From positions 496,001 to 560,000 of the forward strand of contig NZ_SZUA01000003.1 in assembly GCF_005239095.1 (NCBI RefSeq): a stretch of DNA of 64,000 nucleotides, in the 5' to 3' direction. Shown here one piece after another: positions 3,223 to 10,138 of this stretch. Position numbers and translations under genes: made by a program. The stretch comes from Luteimonas gilva. Its GTDB lineage: Bacteria > Pseudomonadota > Gammaproteobacteria > Xanthomonadales > Xanthomonadaceae. Numbering within the stretch: the first letter of the stretch is position 1; every line of letters starts with the position of its first letter. The notes beneath the pieces were generated by a model that searched no databases, was not told the DNA's origin, and worked only from the letters and a program-made list of their open reading frames with translations.

Positions 3223-3341
3223 CGGTTTTCGCGAGCGAGGGGTTGCAGTTCAACGGCTAGTGTCGAACCGCTGGGCGACGGGCCGCATGGCACAATTCCG
3301 CGGCGCGCGTCGAGTAGCCCGGGCGGGATCCCGTCGTATCC

Positions 3342-5609
3342 ATGCAGGCACCGGTCTTCCGCTTCGGACAATTCACTCTCGATCTCGCCAAGCGGACGTT
3401 GTTCCGCGACGGCGAGCCGGTTGCCGTGTCCGGGCGCGCGCTGGATTGCCTGTGCTACCTCATCCTCAACCGCGATCGCGCGGTCGGCCGCGACGAATTG
3501 GCTGCCGCGGTGTTCGGGCGCACGAACGTCTCCGATTCGCAGCTGGGCCAGGTGATCGTGCGCGCGCGCCGGGCGATCGGCGACGATGGCCAGGAGCAGC
3601 GGAGCATCCGCACCATTCAGCGTTTCGGTTTTCGCTGGACCATGGAGGTGAGCGCGATCGTTGCGGGAACGGCCAACGAGCCCTCCGTTTCCGTCCCACG
3701 CTCCGCAGGCAGAAGGTGGCCATGGTTTGCCGGGGGGCTGGCGGCACTGGCGGCGATCTTGCTGCTGACTCCTTGGTCGTCTCCGAATCCGGATGGCGTA
3801 CGCGATGCGCCCACCCTGGTGTTGCCTGCGCGAGTGCGGAGCGGAGCGGACATGGCATGGGTCCGGCTGGGCCTCATGGACTTCGTGGCCGAGCGGCTCC
3901 GGGCGGCAGGGCTGCGGATACCTCCGAGCGAGAGCACGCTGCTCTTGCTGCAGAGGCGGCAGCAGAATGATCCGGCTTCGCTGCGCGAACTCTCGAAGGC
4001 GCAGATATTGATCGAAAGCGAAGCCGCGCACAGCGACGGCGTCTGGAAGGTGAGCCTGGTGGCCGCCGACGACAACGGCATCCGCCAGCGTGGACAGGGC
4101 GAGGCGAAGGATCTGTTCGAAGCGGCTCGGATCGCCTGCGATCGATTGCTGGCGGCGTTGGGGTATCCGCCCGCCGACGGCGATGTCGGTTCGGGGCTCG
4201 TCGCCGACGAGCGGCTGCGGCGGATGCAGGCGGCCCTTTTGTCGAATCAGCTCGATACCGCCAAGGCGCTGCTGGATTCGATGCCGGAACCGAAGCAGGC
4301 GCAATGGCGCTATCAGCGGGTACAGCTGCGCTTTCGCGAAGGGGAATACGAAACCGCACTGCAGGAGCTCGCCGAACTCCTGGAAACGCCCGAGGGCAAG
4401 CGCGATGCGGGTTTCCGGGCGCGCCTGTTCAACAGCCGCGGCGCGATGCAGATCCGCGTGGACCGCTATCCGGATGCCGAGCGCAGCTTCGATGCGGCGA
4501 TCGCGTTGATCGATCCCGCGCGCCATCCGTCCGAATGGGCGCAAGCCAGGGCGGGACGCGGCGTCGCCCGGCTTGCGCAAGGGAATGTCGAAGGCGCGCG
4601 GGGTGATCTGGGCGAAGCGAGGATCCAGCTGATGCGGACGGGCGATGCGATCGGCGTCGCGCGCGTGGACAGCAATCTGGGCCATCTCGAAAGTCGCCGC
4701 AATCGTCCGCATGAAGCTTTGGGGTACTTCCGCAAGGCCGCGCACGATTTCGAGGCCTTGGGCGCGGTCAATGAGCTGCTGAGCGCGCGGACGATGCTGG
4801 TGAGCGCGCATCTGGATCTGCTGCAGGCGGAGCCGGCATGGGCCGCCTCGGAGCGGCTGTGGGCATTGCGGGACAAAGCGGCAGACCCGGCCCAGCGCGC
4901 GATGATCGACATCAATCGCGCAGAAGTGCTGATGCACACCGGCCGCTTGCGCGAAGCCGAAGCGCTGCTGCGCGCTCCGCGCGAGGATACGCGCCCGACC
5001 GAGGGCCAATTGCAGCATTACGCGTTGCGCCAGGTCGAGCTGGCGTTGGAATCGGCCGATCCGGCGACTGCGACGGCCTTGGCTGACGCCGCGCTCGAGC
5101 GGTGGGCGCAAATGCGCGATCCGCTTCGGAGCTGGATGAAGCTTCGCCGCGAGCAGGCGGCATTGGCGGCGGACCTGCCGTCCTCGTTCCGGCCCGGCGA
5201 GCTATCCGCGGAAGCCATGGGCGCGCTGCCCGACAAACTGTCGGCCGCGATCAGGCTGCGCCGCCTCGGACGGGACGCCGCCGCGGACGCGCTCTACCTG
5301 CAAGCCATGCGGCACGCCGAGCGCGATGGCGTGCCGCACGAGATCGTCGAGGCGGCGTCCGCTTATGCGACCTGGCTGATCGAGCGGGGTCGGCTGAGCG
5401 AAGCCGCCGAGATCGTCGGACGGACGGCGCCATGGACGCAGGCCGATTTTCGTGCGGCGATATTGCAGGTGCGGCTGTTCCACGCCATGGGGCCGCCCGA
5501 TTTATGGAAGCGATCGTTGCGCGAGGCGGAGCTGATCGCCGGGGAGCGCCACATCCCGGCGTTGCTCAAAACCGCCAAGCCTCGGGCTGCGGCGTCACCA
5601 ACTCCTTGA
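3342..5609 (+). CDS. Membrane-anchored winged-helix regulator with TPR-like sensor domain (CadC/ToxR-like layout)
   Basis: A 755-aa protein. Residues 1-100 form an OmpR/PhoB-type DNA-binding winged helix (FGQFTLDLAKRTLFRDG, then VSDSQLGQVIVRARRAIGDD and IRTIQRFGFRW). A single hydrophobic segment at about 126-145 (FAGGLAALAAILLL) should span the inner membrane. The large remainder is alpha-helical with TPR-like helices (for example AQWRYQRVQLRFREGEYETALQ region). The layout matches one-component regulators that bind DNA in the cytoplasm and sense in the periplasm; there is no receiver domain. It sits directly upstream of the adhesin and subtilase genes on the same strand, so I infer it controls them. 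The ligand is unknown. Confidence 0.85.
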   Translation: MQAPVFRFGQFTLDLAKRTLFRDGEPVAVSGRALDCLCYLILNRDRAVGRDELAAAVFGRTNVSDSQLGQVIVRARRAIGDDGQEQRSIRTIQRFGFRWTMEVSAIVAGTANEPSVSVPRSAGRRWPWFAGGLAALAAILLLTPWSSPNPDGVRDAPTLVLPARVRSGADMAWVRLGLMDFVAERLRAAGLRIPPSESTLLLLQRRQQNDPASLRELSKAQILIESEAAHSDGVWKVSLVAADDNGIRQRGQGEAKDLFEAARIACDRLLAALGYPPADGDVGSGLVADERLRRMQAALLSNQLDTAKALLDSMPEPKQAQWRYQRVQLRFREGEYETALQELAELLETPEGKRDAGFRARLFNSRGAMQIRVDRYPDAERSFDAAIALIDPARHPSEWAQARAGRGVARLAQGNVEGARGDLGEARIQLMRTGDAIGVARVDSNLGHLESRRNRPHEALGYFRKAAHDFEALGAVNELLSARTMLVSAHLDLLQAEPAWAASERLWALRDKAADPAQRAMIDINRAEVLMHTGRLREAEALLRAPREDTRPTEGQLQHYALRQVELALESADPATATALADAALERWAQMRDPLRSWMKLRREQAALAADLPSSFRPGELSAEAMGALPDKLSAAIRLRRLGRDAAADALYLQAMRHAERDGVPHEIVEAASAYATWLIERGRLSEAAEIVGRTAPWTQADFRAAILQVRLFHAMGPPDLWKRSLREAELIAGERHIPALLKTAKPRAAASPTP

Positions 5610-5613
5610 TCCT

Positions 5614-5633
5614 GAAACGTTTCATCGAAACGT
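5614..5633 (+). promoter_or_regulatory. Direct repeat GAAACGT x2, possible operator in front of the adhesin gene
   Basis: GAAACGT occurs at 5614-5620 and 5627-5633 in the same orientation, 13 bases apart; the first copy is also part of the palindrome GAAACGTTTC. Winged-helix regulators of the OmpR class often bind direct repeats, and the gene just upstream encodes one. The link is inference. Confidence 0.35.
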
Positions 5634-5774
5634 CACGCAATTCACAAGAGACAGGAATGACTCCGCGCACTTCGGGCGGAGAACGTCGGGATGCGCGATG
5701 GCAGACATCGGGCACAGCGGGCGGGCCGGTCCTCGGCCCCGCCGGACGAATCCCAACGTGGAGTAGAGACACCG

Positions 5775-8003
5775 ATGAACCCGGTCTTAGGAGGCATGCG
5801 TCCGCATGCCGATATTTCAGTATCCAGTTTTCCCGCTCGCCGCACCGCCTGGCGGGCAGCGCTCGTACGCGGAACGCTCGCGCTGGGCATCGCTGCGGCG
5901 CTGGAATTGTTCGTGGCGCAGCCGGCGCTCGCGGCGGAGGGCGAGCCCCCGGCACGGTCCGCCGATGCCCCTGCTTCGGCGCGGGTCCGCGCCGCCCAGC
6001 TCGACCAGATCGAGGTGGATGCGGACAGTTCGGCGTCGGCCGAGGCGGAGCAGGAGGAAGAAACCGCTGACATCCAGGGCCTGGAGGCCGCGGACCAGTA
6101 TTTCGACAGCGTCGGCGATCCCGCCGGCGGCGACGCCGCGCTGGCGCTGGGCGACTTCGCCACGGCCGTCGGCTCGAGCAGCTTCGCCGTGGGCGCGCAT
6201 TCGCTGGCCATGGGGCATCTAGCGACCTCGTTGGGCGATTTCAGCACCGCGATCGGCTACGGCGTCAGCAGCGGCGGCCTGTCGTCGGTCGCCCTCGGCG
6301 GCTATACGGTCTTGCCGGAATACAACGCCGCGCCCGGTTTGCCGCCGCCGCCTATGTTGGAAATGGTGACCACGGCCAACGGCGAGAATGCGACCGCGGT
6401 CGGTCCGGGCGCCAATGCGGGCGGCACCGCATCGCTGGCGCTGGGCGCCGGAGCCGAGGCCACCGGAGAAATCTCCAGCGCCATCGGCTTGCGCGCACAG
6501 GCGGTCGGCCATTTTTCGACGGCAGTCGGCGCGTGGTCCCACGCGGACGGGCTCGGCGCGATGGCGATGGGGGTCACGGCCAGCGCCCTGGGCCGGGATT
6601 CGACGGCGGTCGGCGCCGGCGCAACTGCCGAAGGCGTGGACGCCACTGCGCTCGGACAAGGCACCTATGCCAACTTCTCGAGCTTGGCTGTCGGACCTTC
6701 CGCGCGAGCCGTAGGTCCGGTGTCGACGGCAGTCGGTCCGGGCAGCATGGGCGTTGGGCAGATGTCGGTGGCCGTCGGCGGCGCTGCGCAGGCGTACAGC
6801 GATTTCTCGGTGGCTACCGGATTCCATTCCGTCGCGCACGGCACGGCCAGCGTTGCGGTCGGCGAATACGCCGTCGCCGGCGGATACCTGCCCAAGGCGC
6901 CGGATCCGAACGAACCCCCATGCGACATCTGCGGGCCCTGGAATGCCCAAGGCGACCTCAATCCGATGCAGGCTCACCGTGCCGTTTCCATCGGCAATTT
7001 CTCGCAGGCGTACACTGAGGACAGTGTTGCGCTGGGATCGTTCAGCCTGGTGTCCGGAAACAACAGCGTCGCCATCGGCTCCGGTTCCCACGCCGACCGC
7101 GACAACGTCGTCTCCGTCGGCGCTTCGGAGGATTGGTACGGCAACGGCGAAGACGGCGACCTGTGGCGCAAGGCGATCCAGCGCCAAATCATCAATGTCG
7201 CGGCCGGAACCGAGGACCACGATGCCGTCAACGTAGCGCAGTTGGGTCAGTTCGCTCCGATATTCGGCGGCGGTGCGGCTTTGGTCGGGGGCGTGCTGAC
7301 GCCGCCCGTCTACACGATCCAAGGCCTCGACTATTCCGATATCGGCTCGGCGTTCGCCGCGGTGGACGCGCGCTTGACGAACCTGCAAAACGACATCGAC
7401 GACATCCCCGATGGTCCGCCGGGTCCTCCGGGGCCGCCTGGACCTCCAGGCCAACCGGGCACGCCCGGTGCGCCGGGCGCCGGCATCGTGTACGACGACG
7501 AAGGCAAGGGATCGCTCACGCTCGAAGGAGAGGGCGGTACCCGCGTGCGCAACGTCGCCGATGGCAGCGCGGCCACCGACGCCGTGAACAAGCGGCAGAT
7601 GGACGCCGGCGATGCGGCGACGCTCGCATCGTCGAAGCGCTATGCCGATAGCGCCTCGTCGCAGGCCTTGTCTTCGGCCAAGACTTATACCGATCAGCGC
7701 TTCGGCGCGCTCAGCAGCCAGTTCGAGGCGCTGGAGGAAAACGTCGGCCATCGGCTGAACCAGCAGGACGAGCGCATCGACAAAATCGGAGCAATGAGCT
7801 CGGCCATGATGGGCATGTCGATCAACGCCGCGAACGGCCGCAGCCCGCGCGGACGCCTGGCCGTAGGCATGGGCTGGCAGGGCAGCGAGGGCGCGCTCTC
7901 CGTGGGCTACTCGAAGTCGATCGGTCGAACCTCCTTCAGTCTCGGCGGCGCCTTCGCCAGCGACGAAAGCTCGGCGAGCGTCGGCTTCGGCGTCGATCTC
8001 TGA
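5775..8003 (+). CDS. YadA-type trimeric autotransporter adhesin with collagen-like segment
   Basis: A 742-aa outer-membrane adhesin. A signal segment (TLALGIAAALELFVAQPALA) ends near residue 55. Residues roughly 120-450 are many YadA head repeats with the pattern AxGxxSxAxG (for example GDFATAVGSSSFAVGAHS). A neck-like DAVNVAQL segment is followed by a run of eight Gly-X-Y collagen triplets at about residues 547-570. Then come a second DAVNKRQM neck, a coiled-coil stalk and the YadA C-terminal anchor (GRLAVGMGWQGSEGALSVGYS to the end). I chose the ATG at 5775; the frame is open further upstream, but that part is not signal-like. The subtilase gene follows after 26 bases, suggesting an operon. 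Confidence 0.9.
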   Translation: MNPVLGGMRPHADISVSSFPARRTAWRAALVRGTLALGIAAALELFVAQPALAAEGEPPARSADAPASARVRAAQLDQIEVDADSSASAEAEQEEETADIQGLEAADQYFDSVGDPAGGDAALALGDFATAVGSSSFAVGAHSLAMGHLATSLGDFSTAIGYGVSSGGLSSVALGGYTVLPEYNAAPGLPPPPMLEMVTTANGENATAVGPGANAGGTASLALGAGAEATGEISSAIGLRAQAVGHFSTAVGAWSHADGLGAMAMGVTASALGRDSTAVGAGATAEGVDATALGQGTYANFSSLAVGPSARAVGPVSTAVGPGSMGVGQMSVAVGGAAQAYSDFSVATGFHSVAHGTASVAVGEYAVAGGYLPKAPDPNEPPCDICGPWNAQGDLNPMQAHRAVSIGNFSQAYTEDSVALGSFSLVSGNNSVAIGSGSHADRDNVVSVGASEDWYGNGEDGDLWRKAIQRQIINVAAGTEDHDAVNVAQLGQFAPIFGGGAALVGGVLTPPVYTIQGLDYSDIGSAFAAVDARLTNLQNDIDDIPDGPPGPPGPPGPPGQPGTPGAPGAGIVYDDEGKGSLTLEGEGGTRVRNVADGSAATDAVNKRQMDAGDAATLASSKRYADSASSQALSSAKTYTDQRFGALSSQFEALEENVGHRLNQQDERIDKIGAMSSAMMGMSINAANGRSPRGRLAVGMGWQGSEGALSVGYSKSIGRTSFSLGGAFASDESSASVGFGVDL

Positions 8004-8029
8004 TCCTCCCTTATTCAGGACACCACACC

Positions 8030-9886
8030 ATGAAAACATTCCGATCCGCAGCATACGGATCAGTCATCGCGATCTGCGCCATGGCCGCGACGGCGGCCTC
8101 CCGCCCATCCCAATTGCCGCTCCGAGTGCAGCCTGCCCCGACCGCTGCCGATGCGAAAGCCGCGCCGTCGCGGCAGACCCGGTTCGACCGATTCATCGTT
8201 CAATATCGGGAAGGCGCGGCCGATGCCTCCGTTGTTTCCACGCATCTCACCCGAACCGCCCGGCAGGCCGGGGTGAGCGCCGTATCCGGCAAGACAGTGA
8301 CCCTGCGCCAGGTTAGGCGCACCGCGCTGGGTGGCCACGTCGTCGCCAGCTCGACGCCGCTCGATCGCGTCCAAGCCGACCGCTTCCTGGCCCAGTTGCG
8401 CAGCGATCCGCGGGTCGCCTGGGCCCAGCCGGACTACATCAAGCGCCCTCTCGAAACCGTGCCCACCGATCCGCGTTATGCCGATCTGCAGTGGGATATG
8501 CACGATCCGGTCGGCGGCGTGAATGCGCCGCTGGCATGGGACGTGACGGCCGGCGAGGGTGCGATCGTGGCGGTGATCGACACCGGCGCAGTCCAGCATG
8601 CGGATCTGTCGGCGAACATGCTTCCGGGCTACGACTTCATCAGTTGGCACGGCCAGGAAATCGACGGCGTCCTTTATCCCGATATCGCAGGCGACGGCGA
8701 TGGCCGCGATGCGGATGCCAGCGATCCCGGCGATTGGACCGACGCGAGCATGTCCGAATGGTGCCCGGTGGTCAGCAACAGCAGCTGGCACGGCACGCAT
8801 GTGGCGGGGACGATCGCCGCCGTGGCCAACAATGGTCTCGGCGTGGCGGGCCTGGCTTATCGCGCGAAAGTGCAGCCGGTGCGGGTGATGGGCCATTGCG
8901 GCGGACTGACGTCCGACATCGTCGATGCGATCGTCTGGGCGTCCGGCGGCAGCGTCGATGGCGTGCCGGACAATCCTACGCCCGCCGAAGTGCTGAACAT
9001 GAGCCTTGGAGTCAATATTCCTTGTTCGATGGATCCGGCGACGCAGGCGGCGATAGACGCCGCTTTGGGTCGCGGCGTCAGCGTGATCGTAGCTGCGGGC
9101 AATAGCGGGCAAAACGCATCGGGCCACAGTCCGGCAAGCTGCAGCGGCGTGGTGACGGTGGGGGCAACGGACGTTTACGGCGCGATCACCTTCTACAGCA
9201 ATTACGGAACGAGCGTGAGCGTCGCGGCGCCGGGCGGCGGCACCTACGATCCCATCGAGGCGGGCTACATCTGGTCCACCGGCAACAGCGGTACCACCAC
9301 CCCCGTTCCGAGTCCGGAGGGCGATGTCATGCTCGGCATGGCCGGTACGTCCATGGCTTCGCCCCATGTGGCCGCCATCGCCGCGATGATGCAGAGCGCG
9401 GCTGTCGCCAACGGCCATCCGGCGCTCGCGCCGAGCCAGGTCAAGGCCTTGCTCAAGGGCACCGCAAAGCCGTTCGGCGTGGCGCCTTCGCCCACGACCC
9501 CGATCGGCACCGGCATCGTCGATGCGGCCGCCGCGGTGAGCGCCGCCGCCAAGGGATACGACGAGCGCGCGATCGCCCTGCCCTTGACCAATCGCGTCCC
9601 GTTCTCGGGTGCCGGCGGCGAAGGGGGCGAGAACGTCTTCTTCAAGTTCACGGTCGAAGCCGGCACCCGCAGTTTGACGCTGCGCAGCTATGGCGGTATC
9701 GGCGACGTAAGCCTATTGGTCGCGCGCGAGCGGATTCCGACGGCGGACGATTACGATGGCCGCTCGCAGCAACCGGGCAACACCGAGTCGGTCACTCTGG
9801 CGAACCCCGCGGCTGGAACCTACTACCTGCGTTTGGGCGGAGCCGCTCCTTATCGCAATTTGTCGGTCGTTGCGGTCAGGCAGTAA
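8030..9886 (+). CDS. Secreted S8 (subtilisin-like) serine peptidase with PPC domain
   Basis: A 618-aa protease. A signal peptide (IAICAMAATAASRPS) and a propeptide (FIVQYREGAADASV to about residue 140) precede the catalytic domain. The catalytic triad is visible: Asp184 in VAVIDTG, His254 in HGTHVAGT and Ser441 in GTSMASPH. The C-terminal ~80 residues (FFKFTVEAGTRSLTLRSYGG to AAGTYYLRLGG) match a pre-peptidase C-terminal (PPC) domain, common in extracellular proteases. It lies 26 bases after the adhesin gene, so co-expression is likely; it might process the adhesin or act on outside proteins, which is inference. Confidence 0.93.
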   Translation: MKTFRSAAYGSVIAICAMAATAASRPSQLPLRVQPAPTAADAKAAPSRQTRFDRFIVQYREGAADASVVSTHLTRTARQAGVSAVSGKTVTLRQVRRTALGGHVVASSTPLDRVQADRFLAQLRSDPRVAWAQPDYIKRPLETVPTDPRYADLQWDMHDPVGGVNAPLAWDVTAGEGAIVAVIDTGAVQHADLSANMLPGYDFISWHGQEIDGVLYPDIAGDGDGRDADASDPGDWTDASMSEWCPVVSNSSWHGTHVAGTIAAVANNGLGVAGLAYRAKVQPVRVMGHCGGLTSDIVDAIVWASGGSVDGVPDNPTPAEVLNMSLGVNIPCSMDPATQAAIDAALGRGVSVIVAAGNSGQNASGHSPASCSGVVTVGATDVYGAITFYSNYGTSVSVAAPGGGTYDPIEAGYIWSTGNSGTTTPVPSPEGDVMLGMAGTSMASPHVAAIAAMMQSAAVANGHPALAPSQVKALLKGTAKPFGVAPSPTTPIGTGIVDAAAAVSAAAKGYDERAIALPLTNRVPFSGAGGEGGENVFFKFTVEAGTRSLTLRSYGGIGDVSLLVARERIPTADDYDGRSQQPGNTESVTLANPAAGTYYLRLGGAAPYRNLSVVAVRQ

Positions 9887-9890
9887 GGTC

Positions 9891-9955
9891 CTGCCGCAGC
9901 CTGCGGCAGTCACCTCCGCGCCTTCCTCCGTCCCAACGGGCGGAAGAAGGCGCGG
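9891..9955 (+). terminator. Two tandem hairpins after the subtilase gene
   Basis: CTGCCGCAG-C-CTGCGGCAG forms a 9-bp stem (9891-9909), followed by a longer, imperfect GC-rich stem at 9916-9955. No T-run follows, so this is a possible structural or factor-dependent terminator. The rest of the 252-base gap up to the MarR gene shows nothing recognisable. Confidence 0.5.
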
Positions 9956-10138
9956 CTTGCGGGCTCGATTGCACCACTCGCCGGCTGCTTTTCAGACTCT
10001 CTCCCATTCAAGCAGAGGTCGACGGCGATGGCTTGGTTCGCCGCGATGCGAATCCGGCGGGAGCAAGCAGCCCGGCAAGCCCGCTTTACGAAATCGCGTC
10101 CGACGAAAGCGGTGGAGTGGCCGGCGACAACCGAGGCG

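What the first reader, a model, noticed from the sequence alone, without database searches (positions are those of the whole stretch)
3342..9886. Regulator, trimeric adhesin and subtilase as one surface system
A CadC-like winged-helix/TPR membrane protein is followed by a YadA-type adhesin and, 26 bases later, a secreted subtilase. I know of no standard system with these three. The protease could shed or mature the adhesin while the regulator senses the envelope or medium.
Basis: inference. Interest (0 to 1): 0.62.

Follow-up and report, generated by a model that had tools for sequence, protein, structure and literature searches.

The report
Regulated adhesin and secreted protease module
Three neighbouring genes, a membrane regulator, a trimeric surface adhesin and a secreted subtilisin-type protease, form an inherited module in Xanthomonas-like bacteria; the protease belongs to the family of the known virulence protease StmPr1, which turns out to be encoded beside a giant adhesin.

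Summary
In 119 family genomes, a dedicated subtilase lineage sits directly behind a YadA-type adhesin (69 of 107 sampled subtilase loci; the adhesin-linked label needs 3 changes on the protease tree, shuffles 30). Pairs are inherited as units. One family member is about 99% identical to StmPr1, the Xps type-II-secreted protease of Stenotrophomonas maltophilia; there the order is adhesin, protease, T2SS genes. A regulator like this one flanks 17 pairs, none beside T2SS genes. In the upstream-regulator clade a DNA element lies about 30 nt after the regulator's stop. A matrix trained only on regulators next to a different gene (LVIVD propeller) finds it in 11 of 12 regulator-adhesin loci, the window included. 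In three congeners the 6.9-kb block is missing from the same site. Still inferred: that the protease acts on the adhesin (rather than both acting on the same outside material), what the regulator senses, and its sign. The adhesin-protease adjacency was already noted in X. arboricola (PMC12448352); the regulator and element were not found described.

The parts
3342..5609 (+). Regulator (R): cytoplasmic OmpR/CadC-type winged helix, one membrane span, about 600-residue TPR region predicted periplasmic
   Evidence: Pfam PF00486 and TPR; hydropathy and tree of 31 homologues
5640..5662 (+). Conserved cis element, ATTCACAAGAGACAGGAATGACT, 31 nt behind the R stop and about 113 nt before the adhesin ATG; proposed R-dependent operator/promoter
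   Evidence: 17.8 bits with a matrix not trained on it (99.999th percentile of 4.35 million positions is 12.6); locus-corrected p about 6e-4 with a matrix trained only on R-LVIVD loci
5775..8003 (+). YadA/XadA-type trimeric autotransporter adhesin (A), 742 aa; no extended signal peptide; the longer ORF begins at 5691
   Evidence: Pfam YadA_head and YadA_stalk; PDB relatives include BpaC and other trimeric autotransporters; homologues
7413..7484 (+). Collagen-like (GPP) segment in the adhesin stalk, about 196 residues before the C-terminus
   Evidence: Sequence; not specific to protease-linked adhesins
8030..9886 (+). Secreted S8 subtilase (S) of the StmPr1 family: signal, N-terminal propeptide region, catalytic domain, PPC domain
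   Evidence: Pfam; best PDB match StmPr1, 364 bits over residues 144-506; alignment
3230..10131 (.). 6.9-kb block holding R, element, A and S that is absent from the same site (between thioredoxin-like and MarR genes) in congeners
   Evidence: Flank homology to the unoccupied site ends at about 3229 and resumes at about 10132

Best explanation
The locus is one inherited surface module. The membrane regulator R (DNA-binding domain inside, TPR sensor predicted outside the inner membrane) acts on a DNA element just behind its own gene and so controls the adhesin-protease operon that follows. The adhesin reaches the surface as a type Vc trimeric autotransporter; the protease is exported by Sec and the type II secretion system, as StmPr1 is, loses its propeptide, and works outside the cell. 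Most likely the protease remodels or releases the adhesin layer of its own cells, so that attachment can be undone; attack on the same outside material that the adhesin grips is nearly as likely. Shown here: domains, gene order, order-wide pairing, a dedicated protease lineage, co-inheritance, the R-linked element, gain or loss as a block, and T2SS genes in the genome. Inferred: direct R binding and its sign, co-transcription, T2SS export of this copy, the protease's substrate, and the signal. The confidence given is for the module with its local regulator; for the protease acting on the adhesin it is about 0.45.
For: 69 of 107 sampled subtilase loci have a YadA-anchor ORF directly upstream on the same strand. 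On the protease tree the adhesin-linked label needs 3 changes (shuffled mean 30.1, 0 of 500), apart from a clade of 33 unlinked secreted subtilases; the 3 exceptions also have an adhesin next door. Anchor and protease distances correlate (rho 0.50; within-genome partner swaps 0.15 +/- 0.06, 0 of 2000 as high). Pairs lie beside xpsE/xpsF genes at 23 loci; a protease from one of them is about 99% identical to StmPr1, a published Xps T2SS substrate (PMC5003817, PMC11089167). R flanks 17 pairs. The element: EM score 130.8 against 82-88 for shuffles; a matrix trained only on R-LVIVD loci finds it behind R at p<0.03 in 11 of 12 R-adhesin loci; 0 of 126 stretches after S and 0 of 74 after A reach 14 bits; all 9 hits with at most one mismatch in 15 genomes lie directly behind an R gene. 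The block is absent at the same site in congeners.
Against: Most pairs have no R, and 15 of 18 adhesin anchors in this genome have no protease behind them, so neither partner is required by trimeric adhesins in general. StmPr1 is a broad protease with host matrix proteins as published substrates, and trimeric coiled stalks tend to resist proteases (general knowledge). Co-inheritance follows from linkage alone and does not prove contact between the two proteins. No element was found behind R in the clade where R lies downstream of the pair. The window's own element is a diverged copy.
Confidence: 0.68

Rival explanations
1. Attach and digest: adhesin and protease are made together because both act on the same outside material (plant, animal or microbial matrix); the protease does not cleave the adhesin.
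For: StmPr1 is reported to degrade collagen, fibrinogen and fibronectin (PMC11089167), and its PPC domain is proposed to bind collagen (PMC12181431). Passenger length varies widely (about 600 to over 3000 aa) while the protease stays near 600-680 aa.
Against: A generic digestive enzyme would not need an adhesin-bound lineage; the unlinked subtilase clade already supplies free secreted proteases.
Confidence: 0.38
2. Only a chromosomal habit: the pair stays together because it began beside the xps T2SS cluster and is copied as a block; there is no functional contact between adhesin and protease.
For: 23 pairs still lie beside xps genes, and linkage alone gives correlated trees.
Against: 45 pairs are away from the T2SS yet keep adhesin and protease adjacent; the pair is found at unrelated sites with either regulator layout.
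Confidence: 0.15
3. The element behind R belongs to R itself (its terminator or an autoregulatory site), not to the next gene.
For: It keeps to about 30 nt behind the R stop in most loci.
Against: It has no terminator form (GC-rich hairpin plus T run; no + strand hit there); similar sites stand before a Kelch gene away from R in three LVIVD loci.
Confidence: 0.15

Closest known systems
XadA homologues followed by S8 serine proteases beside the xps cluster in Xanthomonas arboricola (PMC12448352)
   Same: Same pair in the same order, each XadA-like adhesin followed by an S8 protease, two of them next to the xps T2SS
   Different: Reported as annotation only: no regulator, no element, no wider survey, no function proposed. 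The window's copy is away from xps, has a regulator and a short adhesin without ESPR
StmPr1 of Stenotrophomonas maltophilia (PDB 9G8V, 9GOI, 9GRG, 9I67, 9I6C)
   Same: Same protease family, layout and catalytic residues; a locus with a protease about 99% identical to it has a 2534-aa adhesin ORF directly upstream and xpsE/F downstream
   Different: Known as a virulence protease on its own; adhesin and operon are not mentioned in the structure paper, nor autotransporters in the review searched
CadC/ToxR-type one-component membrane regulators
   Same: OmpR-type winged helix, one membrane span, C-terminal sensor region
   Different: TPR region instead of the CadC periplasmic domain; 33.5 bits on the CadC model against a cut-off of 400; local target directly behind its own gene
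NalP and SphB1 subtilases that process surface proteins of Neisseria and Bordetella (general knowledge, not tested here)
   Same: A subtilase that acts on an adhesin or other surface protein of the same cell
   Different: These are autotransporter proteases; the present one has a PPC domain and is a probable T2SS substrate, and it is encoded with its own trimeric adhesin

Membership tests
Trimeric autotransporter adhesins (YadA/XadA, type Vc) | YadA head and stalk repeats | tested here: met
   PF05658 125.7 bits, PF05662 54 bits
Trimeric autotransporter adhesins (YadA/XadA, type Vc) | C-terminal YadA-type membrane anchor | tested here: inconclusive
   12.4 bits against a cut-off of 22.7; a relative found with the window's own C-terminus passes at 33.9; the C-terminus shows four strand-like repeats
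S8 subtilases, StmPr1 type | Asp/His/Ser triad in S8 context | tested here: met
   PF00082 166.9 bits; D184, H254, S441 invariant
S8 subtilases, StmPr1 type | C-terminal PPC domain | tested here: met
   PF04151 50 bits
S8 subtilases, StmPr1 type | Recognised N-terminal propeptide domain | tested here: inconclusive
   About 110-140 residues precede the mature start seen in StmPr1, but no Pfam propeptide model matches
S8 subtilases, StmPr1 type | Export by type II secretion | not testable with these tools
   Published for StmPr1 (PMC5003817, PMC11089167); the genome encodes GspE above the cut-off
CadC (lysine decarboxylase activator) | Full-length match to the CadC model | tested here: not met
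   33.5 bits against 400, N-terminal domain only
CadC/ToxR-like one-component regulators, broad sense | Winged helix, single membrane span, large C-terminal domain | tested here: met
   PF00486; single hydrophobic peak after the winged helix in most of 31 homologues, marginal (1.56) in this copy

The most novel reading that the evidence does not exclude
StmPr1-type proteases arose and are kept as dedicated partners of trimeric autotransporters: the protease releases or trims the adhesin, and the TPR sensor of R monitors adhesin or protease on its way through the periplasm and adjusts their operon through the element behind its own gene, a closed attach-and-release circuit. Host matrix damage by StmPr1 would then be a by-product.
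Probability: 0.27. Interest if true: 0.78.

Novelty: new variant of a known kind. Interest (0 to 1): 0.6.

Why it matters
It places a well-studied secreted virulence protease in a conserved pair with a giant adhesin, which gives a testable physiological role for it in plant-associated, environmental and opportunistic bacteria. It also offers a regulator with one local target and a defined DNA element, a clean case for asking what TPR-type membrane regulators sense and how bacteria undo trimeric-autotransporter attachment.

Tried and rejected
Collagen-like stalk segments seemed depleted from protease-linked adhesins (4 of 68 against 13 of 23). This was ascertainment bias, because the query carried such a segment; with an anchor-only query it was about 2 of 33 against at least 14 of 73, counted by hand and not taken as significant. 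AlphaFold2 of R without an alignment gave pLDDT 44 and was not used. Homologues from the fetch from genomes are not among the sequences the fold tool lists as accepted, so no aligned fold was tried. Sigma-70 consensus scan: nothing. Xylella PrtA, looked up as a possible analogue, is a trypsin-like protease, not a subtilase. Best subtilases sampled elsewhere in the class have no anchor beside them. Border repeats of the 6.9-kb block: none longer than 7 nt. Papers on regulator plus adhesin, or protease plus trimeric adhesin, beyond PMC12448352: none relevant in the held library. The border comparison used a wrong window string and was repeated.

Full report
What is there. A has YadA head and stalk repeats; its anchor is below the Pfam cut-off, but a relative's anchor passes. 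S has a complete S8 catalytic set and a PPC domain.

The pair. Searches of 119 genomes of the family with each protein, followed by reading 100 regions around the best subtilases, show that 69 of 107 subtilases with enough upstream sequence have a YadA-anchor ORF directly before them on the same strand. On a tree of 104 subtilases this label needs 3 changes, against a mean of 30 in shuffles: the adhesin-linked proteases are set apart from a clade of 33 unlinked secreted subtilases. The three exceptions have an adhesin that is frameshifted, divergent or on the other side. Adhesin anchors cluster by linkage too (8 changes against 19.8). Distances between anchors track distances between proteases (rho 0.50), and swapping partners within a genome destroys this (mean 0.15, 0 of 2000 as high). 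So pairs are copied and inherited together. The pair also occurs in another family of the order and in named Stenotrophomonas, Xanthomonas and Dyella loci, with a divergent form in Pseudoxanthomonas. It was not seen beside the best subtilases sampled elsewhere in the class. The sampled subtilases were chosen by similarity to the window's protease, so 69 of 107 is a property of that sample, not of all subtilases.

Identity of the protease. The nearest solved structures are 9G8V, 9GOI, 9GRG, 9I6C and 9I67, which are StmPr1 (PMC12181431). The protease of one family genome is about 99% identical to StmPr1 over 356 residues, and there a 2534-aa adhesin ORF lies directly upstream and xpsE and xpsF directly downstream. 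StmPr1 is reported as an Xps type II substrate (PMC5003817 and PMC11089167). In X. arboricola, XadA homologues followed by S8 proteases beside xps were already noted (PMC12448352), so the adjacency itself is not new. The StmPr1 structure paper does not mention an adhesin or operon, and the review does not mention autotransporters.

The regulator. R homologues flank 17 of the pairs, 12 before A and 5 behind S. None of these 17 lies beside T2SS genes, while 23 pairs without R do (Fisher p 3e-4, which ignores relatedness). Adhesins with R lack the extended signal peptide (0 of 17) that 20 of 43 complete R-less ones carry. R relatives also stand before other exported proteins: an LVIVD beta-propeller protein in the genus, and an M4 protease with a large secreted protein elsewhere.

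The element. Comparing the stretch behind the R stop in the 12 R-A-S loci gave a shared motif (EM score 130.8; shuffles 82-88; shuffling removes relatedness, so this test alone is generous). A matrix from 9 of these loci finds the same motif behind R in all five R-LVIVD loci of the L196-L199 and L202 set, none used for training (28-32 bits; 99.999th percentile 12.6), and at 17.8 bits in the window, also not used. Trained the other way, only on R-LVIVD loci, it picks the site behind R in 11 of 12 R-A loci at locus-corrected p below 0.03, usually 29-33 nt behind the stop. No stretch behind S or A reaches 14 bits. In 15 genomes all 9 hits with at most one mismatch lie directly behind an R gene; hits with two mismatches are at control level. 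That pattern was written from the LVIVD-type and nearest adhesin-type sites, so diverged elements such as the window's are not counted in it. The partner gene differs (adhesin or propeller) while regulator and element stay together, which is what a local regulator and its binding site would show. The downstream-R clade lacks it. Direct binding has not been tested.

Moves as a unit. In three congeners the MarR gene and its flanking genes occupy the same site with no R-A-S between them; in two of them MarR and the thioredoxin-like gene are about 120 nt apart around a palindrome, and in the third the thioredoxin-like gene was not found. Homology to the unoccupied site stops at about 3229 and resumes at about 10132 in the window, so the 6.9-kb block with all three genes was gained or lost whole. 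Another genus has the closest R-A-S block with different neighbours.

Mechanism. I take the locus as a regulated surface module: R controls A-S; A goes out as a trimeric autotransporter; S goes out by T2SS and acts outside. That S remodels or releases A is my first choice (about 0.45) over joint action on outside material (0.38). The lineage bond between S and A speaks for the first; the known broad substrates of StmPr1 for the second. Nothing computed here shows cleavage.

Limits. The genome sample is one per species and unnamed. Trees were quick searches, and the anchor alignment is short. The R structure could not be modelled usefully. Transcript data were not available.

Noticed in passing
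window genome G000, 18 places listed, e.g. C2:184591-191822 and C2:218472-229309: The 3.6-Mb genome encodes 18 YadA-type anchors, several in tandem clusters; only 3 are followed by a subtilase.
   Followed up: partly
G000:C2:1129053-1131571: The genome's T2SS gspE lies convergent with and next to a 3536-aa adhesin ORF, with no subtilase match nearby, perhaps a remnant of the adhesin-protease-xps arrangement.
   Followed up: no
L196, L197, L198, L199, L202: Relatives of R stand before a secreted LVIVD beta-propeller gene with the same element; in L196, L197 and L199 further copies, in two loci in tandem 22 nt apart, precede a Kelch-repeat gene nearby.
   Followed up: partly
L210 and L211: R relatives followed by an M4 thermolysin-like protease, a 1640-1850-aa secreted protein with no Pfam match, and a DUF4915 protein: a second regulator-protease-surface protein arrangement (L211 judged by resemblance).
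   Followed up: no
L115, L123, L124, L128: Reversed order (protease then adhesin) in L115, and tandem adhesin-protease pairs in L123, L124 and L128.
   Followed up: no
window:10139-13742: MarR-type regulator, 4-hydroxyphenylpyruvate dioxygenase-like and homogentisate dioxygenase-like genes, conserved in congeners beside the site of the block (names of the two enzymes from sequence resemblance, not searched).
   Followed up: partly
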